64,000 nucleotides of DNA from Callipepla californica brunnescens (lineage: Eukaryota; Chordata; Aves; Galliformes; Odontophoridae), in contig JALIRH010000002.1 in NCBI GenBank assembly GCA_023055505.1, forward strand, positions 38,883,733 through 38,947,732, read 5' to 3'. This document shows, in pieces, positions 8,631 to 44,275 of the stretch. Positions within the stretch are counted from its first letter, which is position 1, and each line of letters opens with the position of its first letter. The notes under the pieces were generated by a model. It had not been told where the DNA came from, made no database searches, and saw nothing but the letters and a program-made list of their open reading frames with translations. The translations under genes and the position numbers were made by a program.

Positions 8631-8699
8631 TACAGTGCTGTGGATACAAATCCTTTGTCAGTGTACATTATGCAGCCCATCTGGAACAAAATTATTAAG
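8631..8699 (+). CDS. SELENOI-like: EPT1-like exon 2
   Basis: A 23-codon, phase 0-0 exon that starts [10 protein letters not shown] and ends NKIIK. The acceptor is ttcctcacag and the donor gtaagag. It encodes the cytosolic N-terminal helix region that follows the short exon-1 peptide in SELENOI. The donor is followed 14 bp later by a perfect 30-bp tandem duplication. Confidence 0.93.
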
Positions 8700-14600: not shown

Positions 14601-17600
14601 ACCTGTCTTGATGGAGTGCTTTGATATTAACCACTGCCTCAATGCCTCACTGCCCGATTTGTTTCAGGTACCAGTCCGGGACGTGTTCCAACCTGGGTGT
14701 GGCTGTTCAGTGCTTTTACCACCTTCTGTGCTTATGCCTTAGGTAAAGTACAATGAGACGATTTATGCTTCACAACTTTACCTACTACCTCACTAGTATT
14801 GGCTCCAAAATAATCATGATGGATAAATTGTTGATCTCCCTCCAAAACTGTTCCGAGTTGAAACAAAAGAAAGAAAGAAGTAAGATTTTAAAAAATTGGT
14901 GTGAGAAGTATTCCTAAGGATACTTCCGGGCTCCTGTGAGCACAGCCCTTCTCTCTCTTCAAAGTGAGAGGTACAACATAAAAAAAGATCACTGCACAGC
15001 AGCAGTCATTGCTGTTGGGTTTCATAAAAACCTTTTGGCACACAGCAGTGGTGTTCTGAAAAAGCACCTGACGCTTGCATTTTCAGAGATTGCTTTCAAA
15101 GTCAGGGAAAATAAAGGACAAAGCAGAAAGTTAACGTAGCATTTCAACCCGTGAGGCGCTTCAGTGCATATGGTCTGTGTCAGCAGAGAGGGTGAGGGGA
15201 CCATCCTGAGGCTCAGATGGAGATGATGGTTTTCTTTAATAGCCCTTTAACATCACTTTCGGTTTTACATACCGTATTTACTTTTCCCATCATGCCAAGA
15301 TAGTATTTCTAGGTCCAGCACACCTTGCTGTGCAGTTGTGTGAGCTCAGCAAGTTCAGGCGCAGACAGAAACTGGTGCAGGTATCAGAGTGACATCCATG
15401 CCAGATGGATGCTTTCTCTTGCAAAGCTAACTCATTTCAAAATAGAACTCAGTACAACAGAGCCCATTTCAGAGGGACTGGTGCTGGTATATTTACATGG
15501 ATTGCAACGCATCATGTAAGAATATCATCTCTTTTAGAGCCAGTTCTTGTAAGGCCCCACATTGTGCGGCATGGTCCTGTAGTTGTGTGCCATACTCCAG
15601 ATACCTGGGCTAGATATCAGTGTGTCCCATGCATTCTGAGCACTTTTAGTGTCAGACTCATGCACGTGGAGCCATCTTCATTAACCATGGTGTGTTCCAT
15701 TGTACAGGCATATCCCTCTGCACTTCGAGTACCTTAGCAGTTTATATTCAAGTTGGAGTTTGTGCCAAAAGCACTTCCTGCAGAATTTCTTCATTTTTGA
15801 TTGTACTATAAGCATCACTGGGACAGCCACCACTTGATTACCTCCGAAACAGTTCTCCTTAATCACTATCAGATACAGCAGCTTTTCTTTTGTGCAAATT
15901 ATTTGCTATGTAACTGTGAAAAAGTTAATGAAGCAGCTATTGTTTTGTAAGCAGGAATCTCATGTTGGAGCTGTTGTTGTATGACACCTCAAAAAGCTCT
16001 TTGGAAACAGAGTTTTGGAGGTTCTTGCTAGGGAGGCCTATAGCTCCTAATACTTGGAAGACAGGGAATAATGATGCTAACAGTGAAAGCTGTAATGAAC
16101 TGATGTATATGTAGACTTTCATGTCTGCTGTCCAAGCCACTACATGAAATATATAGTCTCAGATTTAATTCTCTGTGGCCAAAGTTTTCCCTTTGGAAGA
16201 CTGCAGAGAGCTGTAATAACTAACCAAATATGCAACTTAAATCTCTCTCAGTTTCTTTTTAATGACACAGTTACTCTCTCCAAATTCCCTAACATGCTGC
16301 TCTTTTTTTTTCCCCTCTTTGTTAAGGTGGTTTGGTTTATTTTCCCTTCCCATAAAATAGTCTGTTCTTCACTATTATTTTGAATTCCACTATTTAAAAG
16401 TTTCATAAACTAACAAAACTGAAGACTTGTGAACCTTTGTGAGCAATAACATAAGAATTTTAAGGCAGTGGAAACGTGAAGCTATACATACTCACTACAC
16501 CACACAGTTATTGCCATGTATGATTTCAAACTAACACGTAGAACAGAAAATGTTTTCAGTATCTTAAAAACCTAGTAAAATCAAATGGGAAAAAATGGAT
16601 AAAGATTTTGTAGAAGTCCAGTCATAGGCACAGAGAAACCAATGAAAGAATCTGCTTACCTTCAGGAGGCCACAGATAGGCAGGGATCTCCAGCAAGATA
16701 GCCTCACCTTCACTGCCAACCCTTAAATGAGGTCTGGGATGGGGTTGATCCTGGCTCCACCCTGTCCAGTCATCCAGGCACACTGCATGCACCTGAGCTC
16801 CTGTGGGTCGGCCTCACATTCCCACCAGCTGCTCAATCACTGGGTCAGGCTGTGATTTAGCATTTCTGCTGCAATAGACGTAGACCAATCTTTTATCATC
16901 CTTTTTTAAGAAATCACACTAAAACTGAGATTTCTCTGATCTGGGATAGATGTTCCTAAAACATGAAAGGCCATACGATGCTTAGAAATGTTTAGACACC
17001 TGATTGCTAGCTAGGTTTCAGAAGCACTGTTTAACAGGCTAAAGAATTTTTGCACTTCTAACACATCATTCAGGTAACCTCAGGCTTATCCGCAAGGTTT
17101 TCTTTCTGCACATTTCAGTAAGGTGCTGCTAACTCAATAGTAATGTTACTGGAGAGAGAATGTGGCTAGAGAAGAGAGCACTACGAGATGTTTAGTTTTT
17201 AGAGCTATGAGAACTGCCTCAAGAGGTTTGTATTTGAGCTGAGAATATCTCACAGCTGTGTAGGTATGACAATAGGGAGATAGTCTAAGATCTGTGACAA
17301 AATGAAATTCCATGTTTTTCTGGTTTAGATCCCTGAAGTATATTTACATTAAACAAAACCCAGAGTGCTGCCAAATAATCCAGAGAAGTTGCATATGATC
17401 TATAGCAGCTGTGGAGTTTTGGTCTCGCTCTGCAGAATTGTCTTTTCGGTCAGCTCTGTGTTAATAATGTCATCAACAGCCAATAATTGTTGGCCATGGT
17501 ACCTTCTAAGTAAAATAATAATAAAAAATATATTCTTCATGCTATTACACTGAGTAAATGTTAAGATTTTTTCTGTTTACTCTTTCTGAAGAGGTTCATC

Positions 17601-20600
17601 CTGCATTTTAGCACTGAACTTTGAAGAAGAAATGACTTCTAAAATCCTCACCAGCGTGGCTGCAGAGCAGAGTCTGAGGGCAGGATCTGACAATAAAGCT
17701 AAAGCCCTCACAGAGCCAACTCGGTTCAGTGACCCAGACCTAGAAGAAAACTCAAGGTCTGGCTGTTTTTCTGCCAGCTGAGCAAGCTGCGTGTCCTCCC
17801 CTGCTCAGCAGAAGGAAAATCTCACAGTGGCTCAGGCCGCACTGCTATGCCCTATTGCAGAGTGAGAGCCATTACAGCACTTGGGCACCTTTCAAGCAGC
17901 AGCTCCTCACAGGGAGCAGAAGGGCGGTGCTGAGCTCTGCTCTCTGTGACAGCAACAAGACCTGAGGGAACAGCGTGGAGCTGTGTCAGGGGAGTGTCCG
18001 GCTGTTTGTTAGGAAAAGGTTCTTACCAGAAGGCAGTGGGCGCAGCCCCAGGTGCTGGAGTTCAAGGAGCTGATGTAGGGCAGACCTGCATGGAACCAAG
18101 GATTGGACTCAATGATTCTTGCGGGTCCCTTCTAGTTGGGGATATTCAGTGATTCCATGAAATGCTTTAGTGACTCTGCTCACAAACACTCTCCATGAAA
18201 TCTCAGAATGCCCACAGCAGCAACACATGGGCGTGAAGCCATGTGGGCACATTTATGCACTTCCCCTGAGAAACTGGCTGCACAGGCTGACATGAAGGAG
18301 TGTTAAGGCCATTGGAGACAAATGTTTCTGAATGTTCCTAAAGGCTGTAAGTTAAAAGTTGGCTTTTAATAGAACTGAGGTAAGAATGACCTTACATAAG
18401 AGGCGAAGAAAATACTTTATGAGCGGTCCCAATACATTGGTGTTCAGATGGTCGTGCTTCAGTTTGCTGTCACAAGTGCATTTTTCCCAGGTATATATAG
18501 CAGTAGAATTGTATACGTATATATATATGAATAGATATGTAGTAAATTGTATGTGAGAAAGTTACTCCTGTTGTTGTGTTCTAATCTTTTGCTTCTTTTT
18601 CTTCTCCAACCCTTCCAGATTCCATAGATGGGAAGCACGCTCGAAGGACTCAGTCCAGTAGTCCTCTGGGAGAACTGTTTGACCACGGGCTGGACAGCTG
18701 GGCTACCTCCATTTTTGTGCTCTCTTTTTTTTCTGTCTGTTCCCGGGACAATGGGAAGACTGGAGTTTCTGTATATACAATGTATATGTATTTAAGCATT
18801 GTCTTGTTTAACTTTATGTGTTCGCACTGGGAGAAATATAACACAGGAGTTCTTTTTCTTCCTTGGGGATACGATCTAAGCCAAGTGGTAAGTATTTATC
18901 ATTCCTGTTTTATTTTTATTTTTTTAAACAATGTTAGTGTTTTCACAATATTACTGAAAAGGGAAAAAATATAGCTCAAGGCAAATGTGTTTGGCTGAGA
19001 GTTGAATGTGAAATAGAATAACCCTAGAAGTAATTCAGAAAAATTTCCTGCATTTGCAAAGAAAGGACATTCTCGAGTAAATTGTCAGCATCAGGGATTC
19101 ATTGCCTTGTAGGATAAAGAAGGCTTGCAGCACGCCTAGCAGCCAGATGGGATGCGTGAGAACGTCATTTAACTGCATTTGATCTGGAAATTAACAGGAA
19201 TTGTTATGCTCTCCAAAGTCTTAAGCAATTTTCTCACCAAAACTAGGTTCTGAGGCACTGTGCAAATTAACCCAAAGAGTATTTATTGAAGTAATTACAC
19301 AGGTGTACGTTACTAGACCTGGCCAGTTCTCCTATGCCTTACGCTGAATGTGGCAATATAAACAGCATCGTACCTATACACTGAGCATTAACTGTTGTCA
19401 CCTGATTTCTGCCCTTGAAGAATGTTAGATTTCTTCTTTGGGAACGGTGTAAACGTGATTCTGTAACAAGAATAACGTATGAGTCCACAAGTAGTTCACA
19501 GCTAACTTCTTGCCCAGCTTACAGCCCTACCACTAGGTGGTCATCTTCACAAGCACGAGCAGTGAGGTCAGCATTAGCTGCAGTGACATCACCACACCAA
19601 TGAGTGGTAGCAGTAGCAGCAGCAGCATGTGCTGCCAGGGGCACTGTGCTTGGATTCTGGGGCTGCTGAGTCTCTGAGGTAGCCAGGCTCTCCCATCCTG
19701 AAGAGCAAACTCCCAGCCTTCTGAGATTCCTGTCACAGGCGTGGGATGAAAGGGACAGCCAGCGAGACATAATTGAAAAGAAGTCTGACAAACACTCAAA
19801 TGCGTGTTTTAATGGAAATGTAGTATTTGAATTAACGGCTGCAGATGTATTGTTGTAAACATAATCAGAATCCAGTGGTTTGAGAACAGCTCGGAGACGG
19901 TGGTCCAGCTGTGGTGCATCTGTTTCATCTCCTAGAAAATAGGTTCTGAGGGAAGCAGTTGGCTCAGCTCTGAGACATTAGGCAGCCAGCTGGCCCGTGA
20001 GTTTCTGCCGTATCTGTGCAAGGCTTCTCAGTGAAGTCCTTTCAGCCAGAGAGGAATGGCCGTGTTCAAACCGATTTCACTTGTTGCTTGGATGATCACT
20101 GCAGATAAATATGTGCACGTTTAGAAAGACCTTTCTGATTGCAACATCACCAGAATTGTGTTAGTGCTCAAATGTGGGAGCGGATATCAGCTAATGGAGC
20201 AGTGCTGTTCACTCTGCCAGTGCCTTTCAGTGACCTAGGCCCCTGCAGCAGCTTTCCCATCTGGGAAATAATGTAATAACATTTCCCCGCCTCGCAGATT
20301 TGTGGTGAGGTTTAATTTCAGTAGAGTTTGTAAACTATTTTGATTATCTTGGGTGCAAGGTGCGAACAAGTATTACTTCCTCTTCCCCTTTGATGCTGAA
20401 TTGCTGTCCTGTGCGCTTTCCTTCTAGAAACTTCTGTGATGACTTGCTTACAGTCAAAATGAGAAACATATAAATGTAAGGATTTATTAATGCTTATTGG
20501 TAGCACAGTCATCAGCAGCGTTGGTGGACTGTACTACTGTGTGCCCATTTTTCCATCTGCAAAAATCAGCTTTTGCAGGTGTGGTTGTCTATGAACAAAA

Positions 20601-23600: not shown

Positions 23601-26600
23601 TCCCCTTTCATCACTCGCCAAAAGTATCTGTTCAGAACGCAACGTGTGAGGGTAAATTCAGGCTCTGTCAAAGCCAGCTGGAGTTTTGCCCTCAAATCTG
23701 ATGGAGCTAAGAGTTCATCTGTCATGTCTTATGGATAACATAATGCAGTTTCCTTAGGGAGCCAAACATTACCTCTGTTGTAGCGGGTTGTAAAACCCAT
23801 TATACATGTCCTTCATTTAGACCAAAGCTTCTCAGTGTCCTAAGACATGATTTTCGTTCAGTGCATGCCCTTCCCCAGTGCAGATCTGCCAGTGGTTCTC
23901 ACACAGGCAGTTGTGCATGCAGCCCTACAATGCCCTGCTTAATAAAAGTCTTTAAAAGCTGTGTATGATGGGACAAGAGCCTTGAAATCAGATACAGAGA
24001 AGTGAATGAAGTCAAATACAGTGATGTCTAAATGGGAAGTTTAATTGGCAGCGGTGTTCTGCCACTAGTTTGTGATACTAAATGGCATGTTACCTAAAAA
24101 CACCAAACACTACCGTGTTTCTTCAAATTAGAGCAATGAATATAATGCTCAAGAATGGAAAAATGTTGACAAAAAAAAAAAAAAGAATCCCATAAATACA
24201 CAGTTTTTACTAGGTTAAACAAAAAAACAAGCTAAGCAGAAAGATAGTAAAATCTATCATGTGGTCAGGCTGGAAAATATTTGTGATCCCAGAGTGAGAA
24301 GCTGTACTGAATGGAAGAAATTAAAGTTACTGAGTGTTGCCTGGGAGTAAATAAGTGAACATCCAGTCTCCTTAGCAGCGTTACAAGTAATGTGACTGCT
24401 TGGATGTTTGCAGAAGGATTAAAAACACGTTGTTCTTTTCCTGTAGGTGTTAATAACAGCGTATCTGCTCACCGGCATCGTTGGTGTGGAAGTTTGGCAG
24501 CAGCCTTTCCTGTTTGGTTATTACATTACCGATGTATTAGTGATCTTGCTTATAGGTAAGTGCCTGGCTCCATGGATTTCATTATTTCGATTAGATAATT
24601 CCTTATATTGCCTATACATTTCTTTTTCCTTTCGTAAGCATTGGCCAGTCCCAAACTGACATGAATAGAGGTGATTAATAGGAGTCTTACTGGTAAACTT
24701 AAGCTGGCAGACCACTCTGGAAACATTTTTCCTCACTGAATTCATATCTGTTGTATACAAATAACACATAAATTGTTCCTTAGTTACACATGCAGATCAG
24801 TGTGCTTTACTGACTGTTTTCAAACTCTCACAGACTTCTAATATCAGCCAGATAAAATGTTGTTCATGTTTACATATGGTAAAAGATTAGTAGTTCAGCC
24901 TGCAGCACACTGTGATCCAAAGCATCATGAATAAAAAGAAGAAAGGTATTATTTAAATAACGGCAGGCGGCACAGCTGTAAATCTAGATGATTTCTAAGC
25001 TCTGTTTTTAGAATTACCCTCAGACCAGAAGCATGCATTTCTCACACACAGCAGTGACCAGTTTGCTCATTGCTTGACACTGCCAGTGTCGCTTGAAGTA
25101 AGCACTGAGCACCTCCCAGCTGCTATAGCTACACAGAGAACATGAGTTACGTTACAATGAGGTAGAACACAGCAGTCTTAGCCACAAAGGTGCACATGTG
25201 GAATAGCTTCAGTACGTTGATTGGAAGGTGACAGCATCAGCTTATATATTTTTTCAGGATTTCTGTATGAACATAGAAGTCATGACAAGCAGGCACAAAA
25301 CAAAGGGTTTGGCACAGGTGGGACAGGCAGAAACACATTTGAGCCTTGAGTCAGATAGAGAACTTGGGTAAAGGCCATCACCCAACTCCAGATCCAGCTG
25401 GGGGCTACCAGACTGCTTCCTGGTGCTGCCTTTGCACAGCTTCTCATCGTCACCTGTCTGCAGCATCTTAAACTGACCCCACGTAACCGAGGTTGAGCAG
25501 CCTTTTTATTTGTCAGGCCTGTTCTGTGTGCACAGAGAAAAAGAAAGAAAGGGCAAAAAGAGCAGCTGCCCTTTCGGCAAGCAATGCAAGGATCGGCCTG
25601 GCTGTGCACTGAGAGGAAATGCCCTCTGGTGGGAACAGGGAGCTCTGTGTGCTCTAGGAGCCATGCTTCAGGGACAGAGAAAGGTGCTGGCTTGTGAGTG
25701 AGCTGTGCTGCAGAGCTCCATCCACACTACGCACATCACTTCTGCTCCTCTTGTCAAGAGGTATGATAGCTGCCTCGGTGAGGAGCTGGATGCACTTGGG
25801 AAGTCATGGGTGAAGGCTTAACTCAAACTTAGGAAGACCTGTACTTGGAAAGCACATAGGTGTGATAAAATTCACTTAAGTGAGCATCTTTCTTCATACT
25901 GTACTGAAAAGCAAAGCTTGATGGAATGTTCCTTTAGATTTTGAAGGAAGCACTGTTTCTGTCTAACACAGTATACTTGCATGGCTGGATTCATAAGCAG
26001 GGAACTGAGTACTTCTTCCATTACTGTCCCAAGCAGAGGAGGCATAACTGAGAGCCAAAACATTTTAAAACACTGCTTCTTGCACTCTGTCCATAACGCC
26101 ATTAGCAGGGCAACTTTCGCAGCTGAATTATAGCTTTAATAGAGGTTAATAGTATGCAATGGATGATTTCTATGTATTACATAGTTTACTAGCTTAGTGA
26201 TTCTCTTAAAAACACACACTATGCTTAAATATTTAGAAAGCAACATCCTTCTAATTAAGATCATCCTGATCCAGAGCACACTGGTATGAATCCCACTTCA
26301 ACAACAGTGTTTGAAGCGTTTTATCACTGGATAACCCGTGTGCAGTAAATCTGGATACACAAAGCTCTTAGAAGCTTGCAGTGAATCCCAGGGCCCCACT
26401 GTGCCTACTGAAAAAGCACTGACCTAGTCTACAGCAAGGGCAGAGCACGCCTTGCTTGGACAGACCTGTTTGTCTCAGAGCAGCTCCCAGCAGCGCTCAG
26501 CCCTGTGCCTCTGTGGCCACTCAAAACACAGAGCAATACAGTAGGGCCCCCTCTGCTTTTTACAAGTTTGTTTCCCAGAACCCTGAGAGGAGCTGTAAAG

Positions 26601-32600: not shown

Positions 32601-35600
32601 ACGGCAAAGAAGCAGAACTCTTTATCTTATCTGTTTTAAGAAGCAGCAAGAAGTAAACACATGAAAACGCAGTACCTGAAATGACTTGCAGGCTGGATGC
32701 TCTTTTCCACTTCCATGTTTCTACCTCTTTAAAAGACAATCAGAAAGACTGCAGAAATAGAATATCCACTGTATCCCTTTCTAATTCTTTTCTGTTCCAG
32801 TAATCCTGATCTCCACAATCCCCACACGCTCTTTTACTTTTCCTTCTCGTGTGCGTTGCCGCCCTGGCCATGCTGGGAGTTAGCTGTGTCTCTGATGAGG
32901 GCTGACTGCTAAGCACTGATACTTCTTGAGATTCCATTACGACACGTTGACCCCGGTGCAAAGTAATCTGAAATAGTTCTTTTCTGTGCCCGTTCCTGCT
33001 GCCTTGTCATTGGCAGCGCTTCTAATAACGAGACTGAAGTGTGCTGCACTGACCGTGTACGTGAGGTTTTAAGGGTAAAGCAGAAAGTTGCAAAATCAGT
33101 ATTATCCTTCCCCCTAATGAAGTATTAATTATGTGTGCATTTAGTGCTCCCTTGATGATCTTTAAGTATTATATTATAAAAGCTGGGCAGAAACGTGCTA
33201 CCAAGAGCCATCTCTGAGCAGCAGGCTGTCCAGGCAAAGGCACTTGACATAGGAAAGCAGGAAAACCCAAACCAAACAGCTCAGTGAGATGTAGAAAATG
33301 GGCGTCACAGATCAAAGAAGGGCAGTACACATGCTCACCCGGTAAGGCTGACTCATGCTGCTGCTTTCTCAAAGCACTCGAATGCTCACCTGTTGCTGCA
33401 GTCCTTCTCTGCACCTTGAATGAACGCGTTCTGCGTGGGGGTGTTGCACAGGGCACCACCTCAGCCAGCTCCTGGGTCCCCGGCAGCAGAGACACAGAGT
33501 TAACAGAGGCAAATTCCTTGTCCTTGATTGGTGAAAGCTGAGCTCCAGAAAGGTCACAGCTGTATTTAAAAAAGAAACCAACTCGTCCAAATGATGGCTA
33601 TATCGTGAAAATTAATTCACTTACACCATTGTCTCAGCAAAGCCGCTCGTTAATTGAATCTCAGCATATTGGACTATAAACCTATTATTTCCCCACTGAT
33701 GTGGGCAGTGCTGTTGGAGATTAATTATCCTTATATATTCCACTGGAAAGCTTTTGGTGTCAGACTTGTCTCTTTCTACATGAACAGAGAGCAGCTCATG
33801 CAAAATGGGGCCGTGATCTTTCCTGGGTCCTGCAGGGGAACCCGCATCACGCACAACCGATTGCACTGACTCGTGGCATCACGTGTCTTATAAAGCTTCC
33901 AGCTCTTGTCACTCACTGCACAAGAAAATCTGTATCAGCAGCTACTTCAACAGCAAACTCTTGGGAAAATAAGGAAGGTTATGCTATTGCCTGAAGCCTC
34001 TGGATTTCGTTTGCATCTTGTGATGAGTAGTAGAATACCGAGTTGTTTCTACAATGTCTCATTGGCTCTTTTGTCACACGAGTCTGTGGGACTGTCAACC
34101 TGGCACATCTGTAAGTCACTGCATATCCATCTCTTTTCTCTTCCAGGCTTCAGTTTACTTCTTTCATTTCCACAAACACTATACAACATCCACAGGTAAG
34201 TGGACTAACGTTAAGTAAGTTCTACCACCTCCCATTTAATCCTGTGTTTTTGATGTTTTTTTTGTATGAGAAATACATGGAGCCAGCTGCCCTGAGATGG
34301 TACTGTAGCTTTTTTCTGTCCAGCTTTCAGCATCCGACTGGCTTCTTTCCCATGTAGCCTCTCTGGTTTCCCTTTCACTTGCTGTTCTCCAGGCAGTCTC
34401 ACACTGTTCCTGGATGGCAAATGAATGAAAGGCCCACGGATATAAACAGTGTGTTTTATTTGTGGCCAAATGTGATTCCTGACTTCTACCTGCTTTAAGC
34501 AAAATCCTGTTGCTGACCATCTCCACTCCAGAAAGGAGTTTATTGTCTTTCAGATCCTCCTGTAAAACTCCTCTGTGTATGAGAGCTGCGGACAGTTGCC
34601 ATCAGATATGGGCTAGGCAGGTGGCAAGCTGTGATTACATCTAAGAGTTGGCTTGCTGCACCTAGCTATTTCATGCACAGCTCGCTTATACTCTCTCCAG
34701 CGGCCTATTTTTATTAATGCTGTCTGCCTTCCTCTAGTATTTGCTAGCTCATTTCCCTCACCTGTCACATCAGGTCTCTCAGATCCCACATTTCCTGGAG
34801 GAGGGGCTGTCACTCCCTATCTTCAGGAATTAGTGGCAATGAATATTAGCACGTCAATTTTGGAGAGACTCTAAGATAGTAACACAGAGTTCCTGAGAGG
34901 GTCCCTCCCCCTGTGAGGAGCTGTGGGTGGGAAGGGCTGAGGGCTTTGCACCAGGGAGGGCCAGGCGGAGGAGGAGAGCACTGTATTCTTTCCTCTGATT
35001 CTGGGACTTTTGCTTAGCATTCTCCTCCTCGTGTTATCGTCTGACACAGGCCTTCTGGCAGGTTTTAACATTCCTCTAAGCAGAAGTGCACCATAACTCT
35101 AACCATCCAGCTGGGCTTGCTTGAAGGATGCACATTCAAGCTATGTGCTGGTGAGGGGTTTGAGTTTTCCAGTAATGCTCATTCTCTCCATCCTGCTGCC
35201 TGTTCTCAGCCATTAATTCATCAGAAGAATATTCTTTTTAGGGCTGAAGAAAGTATTTATTGGCTTTTTGTCTAGCTGCATTTATAAACACAGATAGTCA
35301 GAGATCTTCAACGGGATGTTTCCCAGTACACTTCAAACAGAGAATTGCTCATGTGAAATCTGTGTATGAAGAAATAGTTTAATGATAGTGAACTTTAGTA
35401 CATTAAAGCTCCTGCTGCTTTTATAACCCCTCAGTGAGTTCTGCCTGAGTGAGAATGCAAGCTAGATGCACAAGGTACTGATGCCACATTTATCATTTTC
35501 CCAGCTGACAGAAAATAGTCCTTCACTACGTTTATTTGGCACTATCTCTAAAAAACAGCTTAAAACACCCAAGAAAAAAAAAATCACAAGTTTTCCATTA

Positions 35601-38600
35601 CTTTAGTTAGCAAAAAAAGGTGCCCCTCTACCTGTAGGCTGCACTTTGCAACTGCTGCGGGGCTGTCCAGCACATCCCCTCTTGATCCAAGCAACTGCAG
35701 TACCTGCCAGCCATGTGCTCGGCTGTGCTGTCACTGTTCTAGCTGAAGTCATTTCCTGTCTTATATTAGAAGGTTAATCTTCTAAAAATATACGTTTTGA
35801 GTTCACAGCAAGTTTGCACGCTGTGCGTTAGATGACACCAGAGCTACCACTGCTCGCTGTGTGCAAGCCAAGGGGTCGGCTGCCAGGCAGTGATGAGGGA
35901 GTGGAGCTGACCAGAAGCTACGTGAATAAAACAGTGTAATTTTAGCCCAGAAATAAGTTCCTTTGGTATCCTACCATTTCTCTTTAAAAACTTGGAAACC
36001 TAACACGTTTGTACAAGTAGTTGTGTTGCAAGATGAATTCTTGGGCTGAGTTCAGGCCGGAGTTACTGTGCGGAAATAGAACGGATAAGTTTTCTTACTC
36101 CATGAAATCATTGTATTTATTTGCAGAGCACATTTAAGGAAAACACTGAAGAATGATTCTTTGTATGAAGGACTCCTACCTCTTGTGTCACCTCTGTTGC
36201 TCTTCATGCTCCTTACAGTCTGGGTGGTTTTATCTCCGGGCAACATATTAGCAAAGCAACCAAGACTGTTTTTGTGGATGGTTGGGGTTACTTTCTCAAA
36301 TGTTATTGTAAGTATGTTTGCGGTGATGGTATTATTTAGAGACAGCTTTGTGTCAGCGAGACTTCTATTTTTATGTGAATAAACAGGAGGAGCAGAAACT
36401 GTAGTTCAAGTTCAGCAGAATCGCCCACACTACACCTCTTCCTCTGTGCTATGCTCCTTACAAAAATACATCACAGCACTTGGCTGGGCCACGGAGCTCA
36501 CAGTTCATTTTACCACAGAAGAACATTTTGATGATGGCTCCTCCTCCACCCTCCGCCTCAGGCTTTTATGAACAACCCAGAGAGGCTTTAGATTCAGAAA
36601 CTGACAGCTCTGCACCAGCACATCAGGAATGGAAGTACAGTAAAACTGAACACAGGCTCAGACTCACCAGCAAGAGCAGGGGGCTGTCCACAGCCTTCCC
36701 CCACTGTTCTGCCTGCTAGCATGCTACACACACATCAGCTTGTCCTGCATCCCCTCTTCACTGCTCAGAATAAGCTTTCAGGGAAAGACATGAAATGATT
36801 TAGGATCACAGCCCCACACCCAAGGACTGCTTACCCCAAGCCACATCAACACTGTTTCCAGTTTCCCCCTTTTAACAACCATGGGGCAACATAAACCACA
36901 TCTAAGTGGTAGCGTGGGCAGCCAGGCAGTGCTGGGGGCATGGAAGGTAACATGGGGCTTTCTTCCTTGGCCAAAGCCTCCTGCCAGGAGGGCAGCAGCC
37001 AGGTAGAGGCAAAGCACAGCGGCGGTTGGGATGGCGGTCTGCGACAGCATCGAGTGCACTGCATTGAATGTAAGGCCTCGTATTTCCTGGAACTGTAGTG
37101 TGAGAGGCTCACAGGAATTAAAAATGGATGTACGTTAGTTGAACATTTTAAAAGCGGGCATTAAAAATGTATGCATATTAGTTGCAATCTCTCACATTAA
37201 AAAGCGAAAGCCGGGCCGGCGTTTCCTCTCACCTCCCCCGGCCTGGCTCCGCTGCAGGGGACGTTGTCATGGCAACACGCATCCTCCCCCAGTGCTCCCC
37301 CAGGCCCAGCTCGTCCTTGTCTGCTCTGTGCGTACCTGCAGTGCCAGGACAAGTGGCCAGGGCGATGGTCCCCCCCAGGAAGGCAGGTGGAAGGCCTCCA
37401 GCCCATCCTCAGAGATGGGGCATTCCCTGAGGTTTTGGTTAAAGAGGCAAAAGGGGCTGGAGGGGAAAGCTGCTGGCCCAGCAGAGGGATGTTCTGCAAC
37501 CCCGCTAGGCACTAAGCTCGCATTGCTCCAAACGCTCACCGTAAATCTTTGTGAAGGATTGAGGAATATACTTAACAAGGTGGAACAATGATTTAAAGCA
37601 GTGTGAAATCCAACCTTGGGACGGGTGCAATTATTCAGTCAGAAATTATAGCCCATATTTGAGAATTGGAGGGATTGCTTTAGTGACGTCTGGAACGAAA
37701 GACTCACAGGATTGGTGCTATTTGAAACATGCATCATCCATACTGATCGTTCATTGTAAGCAAGTAAGTTTACGTTCTGCACCTACACGTACATCTTGCA
37801 TTATTGAAAGGTTTTCATTTTCAGATATTCTTCATGCCATTATTTTTTCCTGGTCGTTAGATTTCACTCAGACCGCTACCACCACTCTTAAGGGGTTTTG
37901 AGCGCTGCACAGGGAAAGGCTTTTTATTTTTTTTCAGTGTTTTCAGGGTGCATAAAATCTGTTTTTAACCGTACTCAAATTCTGAATAATGCAAAAACAG
38001 ATAAAAATTTCCTAAAATTCAGAAGGGAATGTTGTAGGTGAGACAAGAGTCCTAAGGAGGCTCCAACAGTAAAACACTCGAGTATTAAATGGGATAAATC
38101 TGACCTTGAGCCTCATGACCATTCAAGGTCTCAGTAAAAGGAAGCTTTCAGCTGAATGTATTCATACGCTCATTTTCTTTTCTGCCATTCTGGGTGAGAT
38201 TCCTTTCCCAGGGCCCCAGCTCCATCCCATGGCCCGTCGCCATAACTGAGACAGGGGAGCAGTGCTGATCAGGTGGGTGTTGTGGTATACGAAGGAGTGC
38301 CAGAACAGAAAAATAGAATTTGGAAGAAGTCCATTACTTTCCCTACCTTACATAACAGCAAGCCAGAATATATCTGTGTGATTAGAACACCACTGTGCTC
38401 TCCCAGCGATTAAGTGGTGGCAATTTGGTTTGGGATTACAACTTTACGAGGCTGTGTGGAAGCACAAAGTGTCAAACAAACTCCCCTTCTGCAAAACCAG
38501 ACTTCAGCTCATAAAGTGTGGCATGTCAAAACACTGCCTCCCTGAAAGAAGTGTCTATTTTAAATTACCTGCAATAAAGTCCTTAAAGAACCGCAGACAA

Positions 38601-40014
38601 TGAGGCACGAAGGCTGTCGATAGCAGTTTCCTTAGCAGAAACAGGCTCCATTTTGAGGTCTAGCTTATTTTTCCCCGTCGAAAGCAACGTGGAGAGAAAA
38701 TGGTTGCAGGCTGCTAGGAGAGAGCCGGCTGCCCCAGCTCCTCTCACCCATCTGCCTTTCTTCCCACAGTGCAAAGTCATCGTCTGCCAGATGAGCAGCA
38801 CACGGCCCGAGCTGCTGCACTGGTTCCTGTTCCCATTGGCGCTGGTGGTGTACGCAGCCATCTCGGGGCTGCTGGGCCGGGCAGAGGAAGTCGTGCTGGG
38901 TGCATTCACCGTGCTGGTCACGGCCGCACACGTGCACTACGGCGTCTGTGTGGTAAGGGGCTGGGGACAGCTGTGTGGGCTGTGGGGGTGAGGGGCTTCT
39001 GGGCTGACTTCCGTGCTGTCTGGGTGGGGTGTTGTCTGGGAGCCTGAGTGTTAAGCTATAGGTTCCTTACATGTTGTATGTAGTTGATCAACGGGCACGA
39101 ACGCCCTCGTGTCTTTGCTCTTCCTTCTCCTGAGGTTACTTGAGTGAAAAAAAAAAACAAAACAAAGAAGGTAAAGTAGAAATGAAACTGCATCAAATTC
39201 TTACAATAAGGTGGTAAACATTGCTTTGAATCTGCGAGCAAAACAGCTGCTCAAATGTCTCGTCTTTTCATGGCCTTCTATTAGCTTCTCTTAAGCTGGG
39301 GACTCAAATGGTTTTCCAGCTAATTCAGTCTTCCCAGCACATTTCTGTGTCTGCCAGATATCAGTTTTGTCATTTATTGGCATCTGAATTACTGCTGAAA
39401 TTCACTTTTTCTCTGTTAATGCCTTTTTTTCCTCTAAAAAGCATTGTCAAATAATCCTCAGGAAAGTGTCTTAATGGGGGTTCACATTCAGATAAAACAT
39501 CTTGTTTGGCAAAGACCTCATTTAAAAGGGATTTGCTCAGCATTCTTTTATGGAAGATATGCTGTTGGGACACGAGGATTTTTCCTCCTGGCTATGAAGG
39601 AGGCCCTGTTTCCAGCAGATATTGCTGCTGTCGCACACTTTACCCGAGCACCGATGTGAGGCATCCTGTGAGGAGCAGAATGGGATTACTTGGTCAAAAT
39701 CCACTATTGAATGGTTGGGTCCAGCTCCACCACGATTGATGCCATCTGTGGGTCTGGCCCGTAGCGATTTAAGTTCCCATCAGTGTGCTGCGAGAGGAGA
39801 GCCACGAGCACAGCCCTCTTGCTCAGACACCTGAGGGTCCCCACGCACCTGCAGGGCTGGGAGGAGAGGTCACAGCACTGTGACTGGGAGAAGAGAGGTG
39901 CTGAACCGCAGAGTGTGTGCCGAGCTGATCTCTGTTGTTTGTCTTTAGGGGAGGCAGCTGAGCGAACACTTCAACATTTACATCTTCTCCCTGAAGAAAC
40001 GAGTCCAAGAGTGA
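8631..40014 (+). CDS. SELENOI-like: EPT1/SELENOI-like ethanolaminephosphotransferase, exons 2-10 (5' partial)
   Basis: Nine exons (8631-8699, 13376-13484, 14668-14742, 18619-18887, 24447-24555, 34147-34195, 36127-36307, 38770-38952, 39949-40014) join in frame into 369 residues, all with GT-AG introns. The family transfers phosphoethanolamine from CDP-ethanolamine to diacylglycerol or alkyl-acylglycerol, the last Kennedy-pathway step, in ER/Golgi membranes. Seen: the CDP-alcohol phosphotransferase signature DG-x2-AR-x8-G-x3-D-x3-D is complete in the 18619-18887 exon, and about ten hydrophobic segments follow the usual layout. Against human SELENOI as I remember it, the segments align almost without gaps and the pre-TGA length fits (369 plus about 19 from a missing exon 1; human has 386). 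Residue identity is only moderate in late exons, which argues for a paralogue rather than the bird orthologue. CHPT1 or CEPT1 are excluded by signatures such as [10 protein letters not shown] and SHWEKYNTG. Exon 1 and the promoter were not found and should lie left of the window. Family is near certain; paralogue status is inference. Confidence 0.93.
8714..8773. repeat. Perfect 30-bp tandem duplication
   Basis: Two identical head-to-tail 30-bp units (8714-8743 and 8744-8773, starting aaacagaaacatcatacaat), beginning 14 bp into the intron after exon 2. Exact identity suggests a recent duplication. Confidence 0.95.
9831..9914 (-). repeat. Short CR1 3' fragment
   Basis: An 84-bp 3' stub: ggatcacagaatggcttgga, then ggacctcaaagatcatccag, then ttccaactctgctgccatgg. 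Typical 5'-truncated CR1. Confidence 0.85.
11590..11856 (+). repeat. CR1 LINE 3' fragment
   Basis: Reads gagagggaatgaccttaagt, then gccaggggaggttcaggttg-type CR1 sequence, cacaggctgcccagggaggt and ggcctttcccaacctta. Truncated at the 5' end. Confidence 0.88.
13376..13484 (+). CDS. SELENOI-like: EPT1-like exon 3
   Basis: 36 codons plus one base (phase 0 to 1), acceptor ttttacag, donor gtaaat. It encodes [15 protein letters not shown] and the first transmembrane segment. The PxWxAPNxxTxxG pattern is typical of eukaryotic CDP-alcohol phosphotransferases of the EPT/CPT type. Confidence 0.95.
13485..14667 (+). other. EPT1-like intron 3
   Basis: 1.2-kb intron. I see no repeat or functional element in it. 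Confidence 0.7.
14668..14742 (+). CDS. SELENOI-like: EPT1-like exon 4
   Basis: 75 bases, phase 1 in and 1 out, acceptor gtttcag, donor gtaaag. It encodes a luminal loop and the second transmembrane segment ([19 protein letters not shown]) leading into the catalytic motif. The VPxWVW core matches SELENOI; the rest is divergent. Confidence 0.9.
   Translation, partial: VPVRDVFQPGCGCSVLLPPSVLMP
16660..16880. repeat. Unclassified dispersed repeat, copy 1
   Basis: Shares ordered blocks with 29055-29255: cccttaaatg-ggtctg, then ctgagctcctgtgg / ctgtgctcctgtgg, then caatcac/agtgg-tcaggctgtga, then catttc. It is not CR1. It could be part of an LTR or a DNA transposon; I cannot place the family or exact ends. 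Confidence 0.55.
17905..18160 (+). repeat. CR1 LINE 3' fragment (different subfamily)
   Basis: Blocks cagaagggcggtgctgagct, ttggactcaatgattcttgc and gggtcccttctagttgggga are typical of the CR1 3' region. The wording differs from the 11590 copy, suggesting another subfamily. Moderately diverged, with an internal deletion. Confidence 0.8.
18619..18887 (+). CDS. SELENOI-like: EPT1-like exon 5, catalytic motif
   Basis: 269 bases, phase 1 to 0, acceptor cccttccag, donor gtaagt. It carries the active site: D-S-I-DG-KH-AR, then eight residues, then G-ELF-D-HGL-D. All eight signature residues are present, so metal binding and catalysis should be intact. Two further membrane segments follow, then SHWEKYNTG and [10 protein letters not shown], which are diagnostic of the SELENOI branch. 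Confidence 0.97.
20804..20965 (-). repeat. CR1 LINE 3' fragment
   Basis: atagaatcacagtaccgtag, then ggtagggacctcaaagatca, then cagccttgaacacctccagt: the reverse complement of the CR1 3' end. Confidence 0.85.
21362..21590 (-). repeat. Old CR1 LINE 3' fragment
   Basis: agaatcattgaatcaccact, then ggcctccaagatcaactagt, then acctccagggatgatggctc and gtgcctgaccattctaccac. Diverged but unmistakable CR1 wording. Confidence 0.8.
24447..24555 (+). CDS. SELENOI-like: EPT1-like exon 6
   Basis: 109 bases, phase 0 to 1, acceptor ttttcctgtag, donor gtaagtg. It encodes [17 protein letters not shown], a membrane segment ending in the conserved VGVE-W, then QPFLFGYY and the start of the next hydrophobic stretch. 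Confidence 0.94.
28391..28530 (+). pseudogene. Protein-like open stretch, possible exon remnant or pseudogene
   Basis: One frame reads [13 protein letters not shown], then [20 protein letters not shown] and [18 protein letters not shown], inside a longer open frame (28247-28588). The composition looks protein-like, rich in charged residues with helical spacing. No convincing splice sites flank it and I recognise no family. It lies in the large EPT1-like intron. Chance cannot be excluded. Confidence 0.2.
29055..29255. repeat. Unclassified dispersed repeat, copy 2
   Basis: Same orientation and block order as the 16660-16880 copy, including cccttaaatggggtctg, gctcctgtgg and ggctcaggctgtgattcagc. 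The divergence between copies indicates an old family. Confidence 0.55.
34147..34195 (+). CDS. SELENOI-like: EPT1-like exon 7 (49-bp short exon)
   Basis: A 49-base exon, phase 1 to 2, acceptor ctcttccag, donor gtaagtgg. It finishes the hydrophobic segment ([15 protein letters not shown]). It joins in frame to exons 6 and 8, and the joined stretch from exon 6 to exon 8 has the same length as in remembered human SELENOI, which supports this small exon. Confidence 0.88.
34196..36126 (+). other. EPT1-like intron 7
   Basis: 1.9-kb intron. Nothing recognised beyond ordinary non-coding sequence. Confidence 0.7.
36127..36307 (+). CDS. SELENOI-like: EPT1-like exon 8
   Basis: 181 bases, phase 2 to 0, acceptor atttgcag, donor gtaagtatg. 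It encodes the loop [16 protein letters not shown] and two membrane segments ([20 protein letters not shown] and [14 protein letters not shown]). By hand count 25 of 60 complete codons end in G or C, in sharp contrast to the next exon. Confidence 0.95.
36308..38769 (+). other. EPT1-like intron 8
   Basis: 2.5-kb intron. A GC-rich patch (about 37200-37500) contains an RFX X-box-like palindrome at 37263-37276. Open frames of 80-150 codons in the patch are composition effects. Confidence 0.7.
37263..37276. promoter_or_regulatory. RFX X-box-like site in a GC-rich patch
   Basis: GTTGTCATGGCAAC fits the X-box consensus and is one base from a perfect palindrome. It lies in a GC-rich patch of an EPT1-like intron that could be an internal regulatory element. 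Confidence 0.4.
38770..38952 (+). CDS. SELENOI-like: EPT1-like exon 9
   Basis: 61 codons, phase 0-0, acceptor ttcccacag, donor gtaagg. It begins [12 protein letters not shown], one of the best conserved SELENOI stretches, and ends [10 protein letters not shown]. Two membrane segments lie between. The exon is very GC-rich at third positions (51 of 61 by hand count). Confidence 0.95.
38953..39948 (+). other. EPT1-like intron 9
   Basis: 1.0-kb intron, GC-rich at its start. No other element seen. Confidence 0.7.
39949..40014 (+). CDS. SELENOI-like: EPT1-like exon 10, ends in TGA at the selenocysteine position
   Basis: 22 codons including the stop; acceptor tttgtctttag. It encodes [21 protein letters not shown] and then TGA (40012-40014). 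In SELENOI, FSL is followed by six residues and then selenocysteine; here FSL is also followed by six residues (KKRVQE) and then TGA. Reading through would add only four codons (TPAL) before a second TGA at 40027-40029. I treat the first TGA as the stop because no convincing SECIS was found. Confidence 0.88.
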   Translation, partial: GRQLSEHFNIYIFSLKKRVQE

Positions 40015-42235
40015 ACGCCTGCACTGTGATCAGACTCTGACACTTCACACGAGATTTCCAGCTTTTTTGATGTGATCCATAGTGGAATGAATCTGATTAG
40101 AACAACCAAAGAACAGAGTAGCCCAGATACTCGAACCACCGCGACAACGATGTCCCATCTCAGTGGAAAATTCCTGTGTGGCGCAGAGGTGTTTACCAGT
40201 TGTTCTGCTGTCAGTATTTATTCTCTTCACTAATGCCATGTCCCTGATCTGAAGCTTTGGTCTCCGTCCTCCTTGCCCCCATGCCCTGAGCCCTGGGTAC
40301 TGCCGTGCTGGGTCACGTGGGACTCACCATGTTTTATAACCAGCACCTTTGCCTGCTCAGTCCACCAGTGGGACCCTGCAGAGCAGACCCACGCTGTGCA
40401 TCCCCCCCCACTCACACATCTGTGCCTGCTGCGGTTCCATATTTGTTTCCTCACAACTCGTTTCTTCCTCGTGGCCTCCTGAAGGGTTTGCGTACACCCA
40501 TGGTTTTCTTCATCTCTGCCGAATGCGTGAAGAGAATGAGATCAGAAAGTTATGGGCATGCCACATCCATCCTCCCCTTCTCCAGGGTTAGGATGAGCCT
40601 CAGCCGACCCACACGTCTCACATGGGAACTTGCCTTTATGCTTCTGTTCTATGCAGCAAACAGCGTGCCCTCCGAAAGCTGGGGATAAACGTGGCCAGAA
40701 AGATGCTCATATTTCACTGCCTGCCAGCTGGATGCTGATAGGCCGACTCAGCACACAGCTTTCAAGACCATGAAGAAGCAGTAAAAAATGAGCCGCGTTC
40801 TAAGTGTTTTTAAGCCCCATCTCTCAGTGCAAAATGCAAAGCAAGTGATTATTTGCTTGTGTTCTTGATCCGAATTCCTGTGGTATTAGATGAGAGAAAA
40901 AAACAAGGCAAGAATTGTGGAGAGCTTTTTTGCTTTTTAGTATCACCCATCGGCATGCAGATGTGCACTGCTCGCTTCTTCCATAATGTGCGTGTGTTTT
41001 CTGTGTGCCTTGGAGGAAGGCGCAGGAATCTGAGTTCCATCTCTTTCCCTGTGATGCCCTCGCCGAAGGGCCCTAATGAAACTATCTGCCCACTTGCCCC
41101 AATGGGAGCACTTTATTGCATTTCTTGAACAGATGGATGAGTGACTGAGCAGCACGTGTATCCAGCAGGGAACTATCTCAGCCACCAGAAGCAGGGCAGA
41201 AGCAGTTACCGAGTCACTAAGCATTAGATTCATCAACTTTACACGTGCACTGGGGACAAGCCTGCGTGTTGCCTTCCCCTCTTCACAAAGCAGCAACCCC
41301 AGATGAACTTGCAAAGTACCTTGCGCTTTGGAAGGATGCACGTTCCACATAACCAGTGAGCACACTGAGGGCCCCTCCACCTCAACGAACACCACTACAG
41401 ACCAAAGCAAGCTGGGGTCAGGCAGAAGGTGCAGGTGGCCTTGTTCATGCAGTTTTGCCAAGACAGGGAGGCTGCTCCCCCACGAGTGAGGAGCAGCAGC
41501 TTCCAGCCTCCCTCCCTGCTATGGGCTGTCCCGTCCCTGCCCCATGTGGTGCCCTGGGAGCATGGGGCTCCTCCAAGGGTGCCTCCTGAGGTCCCTCAGT
41601 GCCAGGCTGACGATCACTTCACAAAGGATGCTACGAACAGCCCTGCATACACTGTGTTCAGAGGGCAATTATGAGGCTGCGGCAGGTGTGCACCCGGCGG
41701 TCTCACGGTCTGATGGAGTTAAGCACCCATTCAGATTCAAGATTCACCACTGTGCAAGTCTCACCTATTTCAGTAATTTCAACACACCCCTCAGAAGTGT
41801 CCAGAGGAAGCCCTCCAGGAAAAGAGCATGAACACAGAACCCCTAGAGTATGTCTGGGCTGAAAGTGATTGTAGTGAAGAACTCTGTGGATGGCTTTTCC
41901 TCTTCCTTCTGTCTTGTACTTAGTTGTAAAATTACTGGAAATAATGGTCACAGAATCGACACAATTTGATGCACTGTACTGGAGGGCAGTGAAAGATTGC
42001 ATTAATGAAATTGTAAAACTTGAACTGCCACAGCTGCCTGCACTTATCTTCTTCTAAAGAGAAGTACATCAATTTAAAAGGAAATTGAGCACTTTTTAAA
42101 GTAATCTGTCACTACAGTCTATGTAAAGACAAGTATAAGCAGAGATGCACAGTGTATGTATTGAATTGTTAACCATCGTAGATGGTAACTGGTTCAGTGA
42201 AAGAGAATAAAAATGCTCCTCAGTTCAACAGCGTT
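40015..42235 (+). other. EPT1-like 3' UTR (inferred)
   Basis: No coding potential or recognisable repeat is seen between the TGA and the AATAAA at 42206. I scanned by eye for a SECIS core (ATGA, then about 10-13 bases, then AA or CC, then NGAN) and found no candidate with a consistent helix. Open frames inside this stretch on either strand have no start or splice context and no family resemblance. Confidence 0.6.
42206..42211 (+). promoter_or_regulatory. Poly(A) signal AATAAA, EPT1-like gene
   Basis: A canonical AATAAA about 2.2 kb past the stop codon. Cleavage would be expected at about 42221-42240. A second AATAAA on the same strand lies at 42288-42293 and could give a slightly longer transcript that overlaps MAPRE2. 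Confidence 0.55.
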
Positions 42236-42249
42236 ATGAAGAACTACTG

Positions 42250-42255
42250 TTTATT
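42250..42255 (-). promoter_or_regulatory. Poly(A) signal AATAAA, MAPRE2 (distal)
   Basis: The + strand reads tttatt, so the - strand has AATAAA about 1.95 kb past the MAPRE2 stop codon. Cleavage would fall at about 42220-42240. It overlaps the left arm of the inverted repeat at 42251-42274. A proximal alternative AATAAA on the - strand lies at 43719-43724. Confidence 0.5.
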
Positions 42256-42274
42256 ACAATGACAATTGTAATAA
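42251..42274. repeat. Perfect 10-bp inverted repeat between the two 3' ends
   Basis: TTATTACAAT (42251-42260), loop GACA, ATTGTAATAA (42265-42274). The arms are exact reverse complements. It lies between the + strand poly(A) signals at 42206 and 42288, and its left arm contains most of the - strand AATAAA. Transcripts from either strand could form the hairpin. Confidence 0.75.
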
Positions 42275-42660
42275 GTACATATGTTCTAATAAACACAAAT
42301 ACAATGAAAATGACAATTCCCCCATCTGTGGCGATTCCTGGAAATAATTCATTTGGAAAATACGCATTTTTATACACCAGATCTTACTTGTAACCAATCA
42401 TAATTGGGAAGGGTTGCAGCATTTTTGGAGTCACCGGGTGGGATGTGAGCTCAGTGCTGGAGGCACAGCCAGGAAACCTTCAACCCGGAGGGTCCAAAAC
42501 TCATATGCGGGGCAGGGGGAGCAATCAAGGGAACAGAAATACCTGTTCTAATGTCTAGCAGTATTTTATACATTGCCTGCAGCGCAGCACAACAGCAGCG
42601 TTCTCACATTGAACTCAGAGCCACTTAGCTGCAAAAGATTTCTTGGGAACAGAAAGCTGC

Positions 42661-42684
42661 GTGTGTGTGTGTGTGTGTGTGTGT
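42661..42684. repeat. (GT)12 microsatellite
   Basis: Twelve uninterrupted GT units; as (AC)12 it would be part of the MAPRE2 3' UTR. Confidence 0.95.
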
Positions 42685-44203
42685 TGGGAGCTGATTAATT
42701 CAAACCCTTCCAAGGGAAGCATCAGCTGGGAACCTGAGCTTGAGGTTAGGTTAGCTTTAGACCTAAGGAGATTTTGCTGTTCCATGGGCTTTTGGACTTT
42801 TCAGTGGCTGCAGGCTGAGCTGGGACTGCCAAGTACCTGTTTAACTTAGAGGAGCAACTCAGAATTCAGAAAATTGAGAGGCCAAGAATACCAAGCATAA
42901 AATATTCAGAGCGACTAGAATGCACAGTTCTCACAATAAAAACAAGGAATGCTTTATACACTTCAAGATATTTCTGCTGATAAAATACCATCCTTTAGAA
43001 CAGGGTAGCAGGGACCATTCTGGAAGGGAGCACTCTCACCACAGGCAGCTCCAGGTTTGATGTACTCGTGCAGCACGTCAGCCTCGCTGGAGGACTCAGC
43101 CCCATGCGGTGCCCTCAGCTGGTTGCATGGACACACCACCACCTGGAGGACTTCTCAACATCTCTCCACATTTCACAAGCAGACTCGGCAGCCTCAAGGT
43201 GCTCATCACCACTTACATGGGGTTTTCAGGGCTGGTTCTGGGGCTGGTTTCCTCATCCATGCTTGCGCGGTCGAGGCAGCGGGGTGGAAGGAAGCAGCTG
43301 CCCTACTTTGTTCTCTTGTGAGGGTGCGGAGCCAAGTGTGTCAGCAGAGACAGTGTTCTGCAGCTACGCTTGTGTCAAGGAGATTCCTTCACCTCCATCA
43401 GCACCGTGTCCTGTGGAGGTGGAGCTGCAGGCTGGGACAGAATTCCTCAGGAAGGAAGAAAAGCTGGGAAATGTCTATTGACTGGTTAGGAAACCAGGGA
43501 GGGTTTTGAAAAAACTTAGGTGATGTATGTCCTCCAGAAATAAGCCAGAAACATACCATGCAGCTTTCTAACACAAGGTTTCAAATCTCTCCTAGTGAAA
43601 CAGATGCTTTGCCTCCCATTTGGTGAAGGCGGGAAAGGAACAAACGTGAGCAACGTGAGCATTTTCCTCCACAACAGATCTCATCGGTATGGCTTGAACA
43701 TGACTTCCACTGTATCCCTTTATTCCAATTGTTTGACCAAATTTACGCCCCAGGGCAGACGTACGAGAGAACGCCAAAGCACCACACAGTGAGAGACACA
43801 GCTAGTAGTACGGTACTTCTTGCCACACAAAATGCCAATATAAATATGTTAGAACAAGTTACAAGTGTATCATACTTAAGACAAAAAGAAAAAAAAATAA
43901 ATATATATATTTTCTTAAAGAGCAGAACAAATCTCAAGCAGCCAAGTGGTGAAGTTGCAGCGATGTACAGTAGGTGATGTAGCCCTACAGCCTCTCGGGA
44001 GGATACACTGAAAGAAGACTTCTGCAAATGCATCTTGGCAAAGTATGGGTACAGAATGCAGTGGTTGGCTGGCACTCACTATGGTACATAAATGTTAATG
44101 GCAGACTGGGAGTGAACCGATTTCAAGTTTGAGGCCACACATGTTCCATTCTCCAGAAGAAAGTTCTCACACAAAATGAAAATTGTCAGAGACGCTGCGT
44201 GAA

Positions 44204-44275
44204 TCAGTACTCCTCCTGCTGCTGGGGCTGTTCGTGGACCTGCTCTTCGCCTTCATGCTCCTCTGTGTGGCTCTC
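44204..44275 (-). CDS. MAPRE2: MAPRE2 last coding exon, acidic EEY tail
   Basis: 24 codons including a TGA stop (44204-44206), acceptor CTGCCCGCAG. It encodes ESHTEEHEGEEQ, then VHEQPQQQEEY. The terminal EEY/F is the CAP-Gly docking signal also found on alpha-tubulin. It is too short to appear as a simple open frame, and was placed by splice phase and tail similarity. Confidence 0.95.
   Translation of the reverse strand, partial: ESHTEEHEGEEQVHEQPQQQEEY

What the first reader, a model, noticed from the sequence alone, without database searches (positions are those of the whole stretch)
40012..40029. Stop TGA sits exactly where SELENOI encodes selenocysteine
The spacing from the FSL motif to the TGA equals that to Sec in SELENOI. 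Only four codons follow before another TGA, and I see no convincing SECIS in the 2.2-kb 3' UTR. This looks like a former selenoprotein in which the Sec codon became a true stop; the alternative is a short Sec-containing tail.
Basis: partly seen in the sequence, partly recalled or inferred. Interest (0 to 1): 0.8.

Follow-up and report, generated by a model that had tools for sequence, protein, structure and literature searches.

The report
Selenium-free twin of a selenoprotein gene
A bird gene for a membrane-lipid enzyme ends at the exact spot where its sister gene inserts the rare amino acid selenocysteine, most likely because it kept an old stop signal that the sister turned into a selenocysteine codon, and not because it lost selenium.

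Summary
The window holds an intact SELENOI paralogue, "ethanolaminephosphotransferase 1-like" (EPT1L). It ends ...[12 protein letters not shown] (40012-40014), gap-free against ...FSLKKPTPD-TGA(Sec) of the same genome's SELENOI. Four codons (TPAL) follow, then TGA. No SECIS was found 3'; the same search recovers one, weakly, behind SELENOI. So the TGA is very probably a true stop.

"Former selenoprotein" is less likely than the reverse. (1) EPT1L branches at the base of the vertebrates; 59 of 67 records with a normal last exon, from ray-finned fish to birds, end at this codon. (2) Invertebrate EPT1s end near it: 90 of 121 rows at F+5 to F+10, 20 exactly at F+8, so the coincidence is only about 1 in 6. 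(3) Cys133, the proposed Sec partner, is in 13 of 13 SELENOI rows and both hagfish copies, but in 0 of 19 EPT1L and 0 of 15 invertebrate rows.

Best reading: the stop is ancestral, and SELENOI turned it into Sec by C-terminal extension. The tree does not settle the order (AU p 0.32, 0.38), and deuterostome invertebrates have longer tails, so Sec loss in EPT1L is not excluded.

The parts
8631..8699 (+). EPT1L exon 2 ([10 protein letters not shown]...)
   Evidence: gene model; AG/GT ends
13376..13484 (+). EPT1L exon 3
14668..14742 (+). EPT1L exon 4
18619..18887 (+). EPT1L exon 5; [quoted passage not shown]
   Evidence: motif definition read in PMC8540796 section 3
24447..24555 (+). EPT1L exon 6
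34147..34195 (+). EPT1L exon 7 (49 bp)
   Evidence: best-scoring AG...GT candidate of the intron (31, next 11)
36127..36307 (+). EPT1L exon 8
38770..38952 (+). EPT1L exon 9
39949..40014 (+). EPT1L last exon, coding part, [21 protein letters not shown] and the stop TGA
40012..40014 (+). stop TGA at the position of the SELENOI Sec codon
40015..40029 (+). four further in-frame codons (TPAL) and second TGA
40030..42300 (+). 3' UTR (extent inferred from poly(A) signals) without a recognisable SECIS; AATAAA at 42206 and 42288

Best explanation
The gene is EPT1L, an intact, Sec-free CDP-alcohol (probably CDP-ethanolamine) phosphotransferase that split from SELENOI at the base of the vertebrates. Its TGA is the family's ordinary stop codon, kept near its ancestral place. 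In the SELENOI line the stop at that place was, or became, UGA. A SECIS in the 3' UTR let it be read as selenocysteine, the next stop downstream became the end of a short C-terminal extension, and Cys133 appeared near the active site. EPT1L therefore shows the state before Sec. Shown: gene structure, stop position, no recognised SECIS, distribution of tail ends and of Cys133, age of the paralogue. Inferred: the direction stop to Sec, enzymatic activity, and the link between Cys133 and Sec.
For: Own-genome SELENOI with Sec TGA and SECIS as a matched control. 59 of 67 EPT1L records with a normal last exon end exactly at F+8, 50 of the 59 with Asp or Glu as last residue. 121 invertebrate EPT1 rows: 90 end at F+5 to F+10, 73 at F+7 or F+8 (59 of these with an acidic last residue), 20 at exactly F+8, including Limulus, Tachypleus, scorpion and spider. 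Trees: vertebrate EPT1L and SELENOI together 100/99 against invertebrates; EPT1L 100/100; SELENOI with cyclostomes 89/95 in the 49-row tree, order open in the 61-row tree. Cys133: 13 of 13 SELENOI rows (lamprey included) and both hagfish copies, 0 of 19 EPT1L (window included), 0 of 15 invertebrates; 2 of 121 in the larger invertebrate set. Derived sites shared by jawed SELENOI and both cyclostomes but not EPT1L: 6, against 2 for the rival grouping and 0 for the third (cut-offs chosen by me). Selenoprotein surveys place Sec-bearing SelI at the root of vertebrates and did not detect it in amphioxus or tunicates (PMC3316567 section 13; PMC3473315 passage). Gain of Sec by C-terminal extension at a former stop is a published suggestion, for Xenopus SelP and, before that, thioredoxin reductases (PMC2397514 passages).
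Against: The nearest invertebrate outgroups end elsewhere: crinoids F+10, amphioxus F+11, brittle star F+14, sea stars F+17 and F+18, hemichordates F+21, F+25 and F+36. The AU test does not reject EPT1L with jawed-vertebrate SELENOI to the exclusion of cyclostomes (p 0.324; p 0.384 with tails cut off in 59 of 61 rows). No DNA of cyclostome SELENOI or of non-avian EPT1L was available, so Sec in cyclostomes and the kind of stop in most EPT1Ls are unseen. Part of the invertebrate set came from a search that excluded proteins shorter than 388 aa. The published C-terminal-extension case assumes a UAA/UAG to UGA change, so a shared UGA is not required by it.
Confidence: 0.62

Rival explanations
1. 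Former selenoprotein. The common ancestor of EPT1L and SELENOI already had Sec; EPT1L lost its SECIS (and Cys133) and the UGA became a stop.
For: Exact positional match of stop and Sec. In the emu the stop is also TGA, forced by the other-frame record P0093. The tree order is unresolved, and the deuterostome invertebrate outgroups do not end at F+8.
Against: Needs gain and loss of Sec, SECIS and Cys133 on one lineage. EPT1L carries the invertebrate states at 133. No SECIS and no likeness to the SELENOI tail was found, though little trace would be expected after so long.
Confidence: 0.23
2. Independent drift. The last common ancestor ended elsewhere (for instance at F+11 as in amphioxus), and the EPT1L stop came to this codon on its own.
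For: Tail ends vary widely in invertebrates (F+5 to F+36), with 20 of 121 at exactly F+8; 8 of 67 EPT1L rows have other ends.
Against: 59 of 67 EPT1L rows from ray-finned fish to birds hold the same end, so it was fixed early.
Confidence: 0.12
3. EPT1L is still a selenoprotein with a four-residue tail after Sec (TPAL).
For: An in-frame TGA with a second TGA four codons on; many database records of SELENOI too are cut at the Sec codon, so record length alone cannot tell.
Against: No SECIS found, no Cys133, and ends upstream of this codon in alligator and in 6 squamate rows.
Confidence: 0.03

Closest known systems
SELENOI (EPT1, selenoprotein I)
   Same: CDP-alcohol phosphotransferase motif; gap-free C-terminus up to the TGA; 53-56% identity to the SELENOI rows listed; exon by exon match to the own-genome SELENOI
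   Different: SELENOI has Sec at this codon, a tail after it, a SECIS and Cys133; EPT1L has none of these as far as tested
Invertebrate EPT1
   Same: Sec-free end near F+8 in most rows, Thr/Ala/Ser at position 133
   Different: branches before the EPT1L/SELENOI split; Cys at 310 in 1 of 15 rows, against 18 of 19 EPT1L and 13 of 13 SELENOI
CEPT1 / CHPT1
   Same: same fold: the model of the Parus orthologue matches 8gyw with TM 0.85 and 9uet with 0.83
   Different: about 25% identity; weaker matches on contigs C42 and C162 of this genome are probably these genes (names inferred)
Sec gain by C-terminal extension (Xenopus SelP; thioredoxin reductases)
   Same: a new Sec codon where relatives have their stop (PMC2397514 passages)
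   Different: the SelP case was seen between orthologues; here it would be between two old paralogues

Membership tests
EPT1-type CDP-alcohol phosphotransferase | CDP-AP motif D(X)2DG(X)2AR(X)7-12G(X)3D(X)3D | tested here: met
   residues 104-129
EPT1-type CDP-alcohol phosphotransferase | PF01066 domain | tested here: met
   39.5 bits against a cut-off of 22
EPT1-type CDP-alcohol phosphotransferase | fold of CEPT1/CHPT1 | tested here: met
   model of the Parus orthologue P0003, not of the window protein itself (pLDDT 89); Foldseek E 1.5e-17 to human CEPT1
EPT1-type CDP-alcohol phosphotransferase | ethanolamine phosphotransferase activity | not testable with these tools
   needs an enzyme assay
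Selenoprotein (SELENOI kind) | SECIS in the 3' UTR | tested here: not met
   control found, weakly,
Selenoprotein (SELENOI kind) | SELENOI-like extension after the UGA | tested here: not met
   TPAL then TGA against LGMEEEKISL; conservation across species seen for emu only, by inference
Selenoprotein (SELENOI kind) | Cys133 near the active site (proposed Sec partner) | tested here: not met
   Thr at 133
Selenoprotein (SELENOI kind) | UGA decoded as Sec | not testable with these tools
   needs mass spectrometry or 75Se labelling
Pseudogene | broken frame or splice sites | tested here: not met
   388 codons in ten exons, GT-AG at every junction read

The most novel reading that the evidence does not exclude
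SELENOI's selenocysteine arose by conversion of the ancestral EPT1 stop codon at the root of the vertebrates. EPT1L is the unconverted twin, and Cys133 is the one cysteine that came with Sec: Cys310, listed in 2012 as SELENOI-specific, is also in 18 of 19 EPT1L rows and therefore probably predates it. The two genes of one genome are then a natural before-and-after pair for asking what Sec does in a lipid-synthesis enzyme.
Probability: 0.55. Interest if true: 0.6.

Novelty: new member of a known kind. Interest (0 to 1): 0.42.

Why it matters
The role of Sec in SELENOI is an open question. A 2012 survey found no Cys form of its tail and doubted that the activity of the Sec-less form tells its real function (PMC3316567 section 12); a 2021 review notes that the Sec-less recombinant protein retained Ept activity in vitro (PMC8540796 section 3). 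EPT1L is a natural Sec-free close relative with an intact active-site motif. Of the three cysteines proposed as Sec partners, only Cys133 follows Sec in the rows compared here, and the gene pair would be an example of a stop codon turned into a Sec codon.

Tried and rejected
Considered and dropped: pseudogene (frame and splice sites intact); the gene being SELENOI itself (SELENOI is a separate locus on contig C7). The first tree, with human CEPT1 as outgroup, was dropped because CEPT1 sat on a branch of about 10 changes per site. The tail counts came from a faulty pattern and are replaced by those. The search for exon 1 inside the window failed because the exon lies upstream of it. Other-frame reading of database records gave a forced TGA for the emu EPT1L only; I noticed no other EPT1L record with the last exon in another frame when looking at the ends of the 120 rows. 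No model coordinates were available in the Python box, so the distance from residue 133 to the tail was not measured. The gene name EPT1L is in print in passing (PMC7243251, PMC8748702, passages). A discussion of its stop against the Sec codon was not found in the listings (open-licence PMC papers only; I looked into some of the listed papers, not all). One review hit for "SELENOI2" (PMC13059024) gave, in the passages shown, no paralogue of that name; the hit is probably SELENOI followed by a superscript reference number.

Full report
What is there. On the plus strand the window carries exons 2 to 10 of an ethanolaminephosphotransferase 1-like gene (EPT1L). All junctions are GT-AG, and the nine exons give 369 codons; exon 1 (MWRRRYVSGRQLDGFRHYK) lies upstream of the window at C2:38878937-38878993, about 4.7 kb away. 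The protein has PF01066 and the complete CDP-alcohol phosphotransferase motif at residues 104-129. The closest named record is "ethanolaminephosphotransferase 1-like [Parus major]", 93% identical.

The observation. The last exon reads [21 protein letters not shown], then TGA at 40012-40014, four codons (TPAL), and TGA at 40027-40029. The same genome's SELENOI, on contig C7, ends VSQLSRHFNIRPFSLKKPTPD-TGA-LGMEEEKISL and a little further (DNA). The two align without a gap, so the EPT1L stop is exactly at the Sec codon.

SECIS. Rfam, listed up to E 10, finds no SECIS in window 39000-48000 or 40015-42400. The same tool lists SECIS_1 at L009 5562-5495 minus, about 1.2 kb behind the SELENOI Sec codon (21.4 bits; E 2.6 on 10 kb; E 0.46 on 1.8 kb). 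That is below Rfam's curated cut-off of 35 bits, so the control is weak, but it has the AUGA...AAA...GA core. A scan of my own ranks this SECIS first in its UTR (19); the best score in the EPT1L UTR is 11, under the median of 100 shuffles (17). The scan is not specific: shuffles of the SELENOI UTR reach 19 at the 90th percentile. Together these make a working SECIS in EPT1L unlikely, not impossible.

Relatives. Of the 120 rows listed (1,153 passed the threshold), I assigned 83 to EPT1L by rank and identity (P0003-P0082, P0093, P0098, P0104) and 37 to SELENOI; 17, 18 and 23 of the 83 were also placed in trees, with the window. Sixteen EPT1L rows lack a normal last exon and were dropped. Of the remaining 67, 59 end at F+8. 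The other eight are alligator (F+6), six squamates (F+4, F+5, F+5, F+7, F+7, F+7) and one long alligator-lizard isoform. The 59 include ray-finned fish, coelacanth, lungfish, amphibians, turtles, birds, monotremes and marsupials. Record length alone does not prove a stop, because many SELENOI records are also cut at the Sec codon. For the emu the stop is shown to be TGA: isoform record P0093 runs through the last exon in another frame, and its Met-Asn pair forces TGA at this place.

Invertebrates. Searches gave 121 invertebrate EPT1 rows (vertebrate rows left out; unnamed rows judged by sequence). Counted on an alignment, the number of residues after the conserved F is 5-10 in 90, 7 or 8 in 73, and exactly 8 in 20; 59 of the 73 end in Asp or Glu. 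Chelicerates such as Limulus (FSLKKTSKD) and Centruroides (FSLKKVPAD) look like SELENOI up to its Sec. Against this, the deuterostome invertebrates have longer tails: crinoids 10, amphioxus 11, brittle star 14, sea stars 17 and 18, hemichordates 21, 25 and 36. The family habitually ends near the later Sec position, so the coincidence has roughly a 1-in-6 chance (20 of 121) even if unrelated to Sec; rows are not independent, so this is a guide only.

Tree and cysteines. With 49 rows, vertebrate EPT1 genes group against invertebrates (100/99), EPT1L is one clade (100/100), and SELENOI with lamprey and both hagfish copies is another (89/95). With 61 rows, tails cut off in 59 of them and the second hagfish copy left out, EPT1L, cyclostome SELENOI and jawed SELENOI leave an open three-way fork. 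The rival grouping (EPT1L with jawed SELENOI) is not rejected: p-AU 0.324 and 0.384. A count of derived sites favours SELENOI plus cyclostomes by 6 to 2 to 0 (cut-offs chosen by me). One of the six is Cys133, which the 2012 selenoproteome survey picked as the best partner for Sec (PMC3316567 section 12). It is in 13 of 13 SELENOI and both hagfish copies, in 0 of 19 EPT1L (window included), 0 of 15 invertebrates and 2 of 121 in the larger set. The survey's other two candidates do not follow Sec: Cys310 is in 18 of 19 EPT1L rows, and Cys229 in 16 of 19 EPT1L but only 11 of 13 SELENOI.

Interpretation. EPT1L has the invertebrate state at position 133 and an end within the invertebrate range. The simplest history is one gain, stop to Sec with a new tail, SECIS and Cys133, on the SELENOI line, with EPT1L left as it was. 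Surveys date Sec-bearing SelI to the root of vertebrates and suggest a link with the genome duplication there (PMC3316567 section 13; PMC3473315 passage), and the mechanism has been proposed for Xenopus SelP and thioredoxin reductases (PMC2397514 passages).

Function. The AlphaFold model of the Parus orthologue (pLDDT 89) has the CEPT1 fold (TM 0.85 to 8gyw). Sec-less recombinant SELENOI retains Ept activity in vitro (PMC8540796 section 3), though the 2012 survey doubted that this shows its real function. EPT1L is therefore probably an active phosphotransferase without Sec; its substrate choice is untested. A circular RNA from an EPT1L exon is listed for chicken ovarian follicles (PMC7243251, passage), so the gene is probably transcribed there.

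Novelty. The gene is in public annotation under "ethanolaminephosphotransferase 1-like". I found no text that treats its stop against the Sec codon (listings; open-licence papers only). The kind is known; the paired comparison is the useful part.

Noticed in passing
L009 6795-6780 (minus strand): The Sec codon of this bird's SELENOI stands in TGA-CTA-G, a context known (recalled) to favour stop-codon readthrough; the other-frame chicken record P0140 is consistent with TGA there but does not force it.
   Followed up: partly
P0123: A SELENOI-like record without a species name has Trp where SELENOI has Sec (...KKPSTDWLEEEEKIG...). It may be a real Sec-to-Trp change or only a translation with TGA read as Trp.
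   Followed up: no
listing: Named EPT1L rows include monotremes, marsupials and early-branching ray-finned fish, but no placental mammal, cartilaginous fish or percomorph among the 83 rows of this capped list, which may point to several losses.
   Followed up: no
window 448-602 and 58345-58499: Two copies of a 155-bp stretch, 96% identical, a recent interspersed repeat of unknown kind.
   Followed up: no
P0124 and P0141 (hagfish): Hagfish has two SELENOI-side copies, both with Cys133; one ends ...KPNSH and sits on a long branch.
   Followed up: partly
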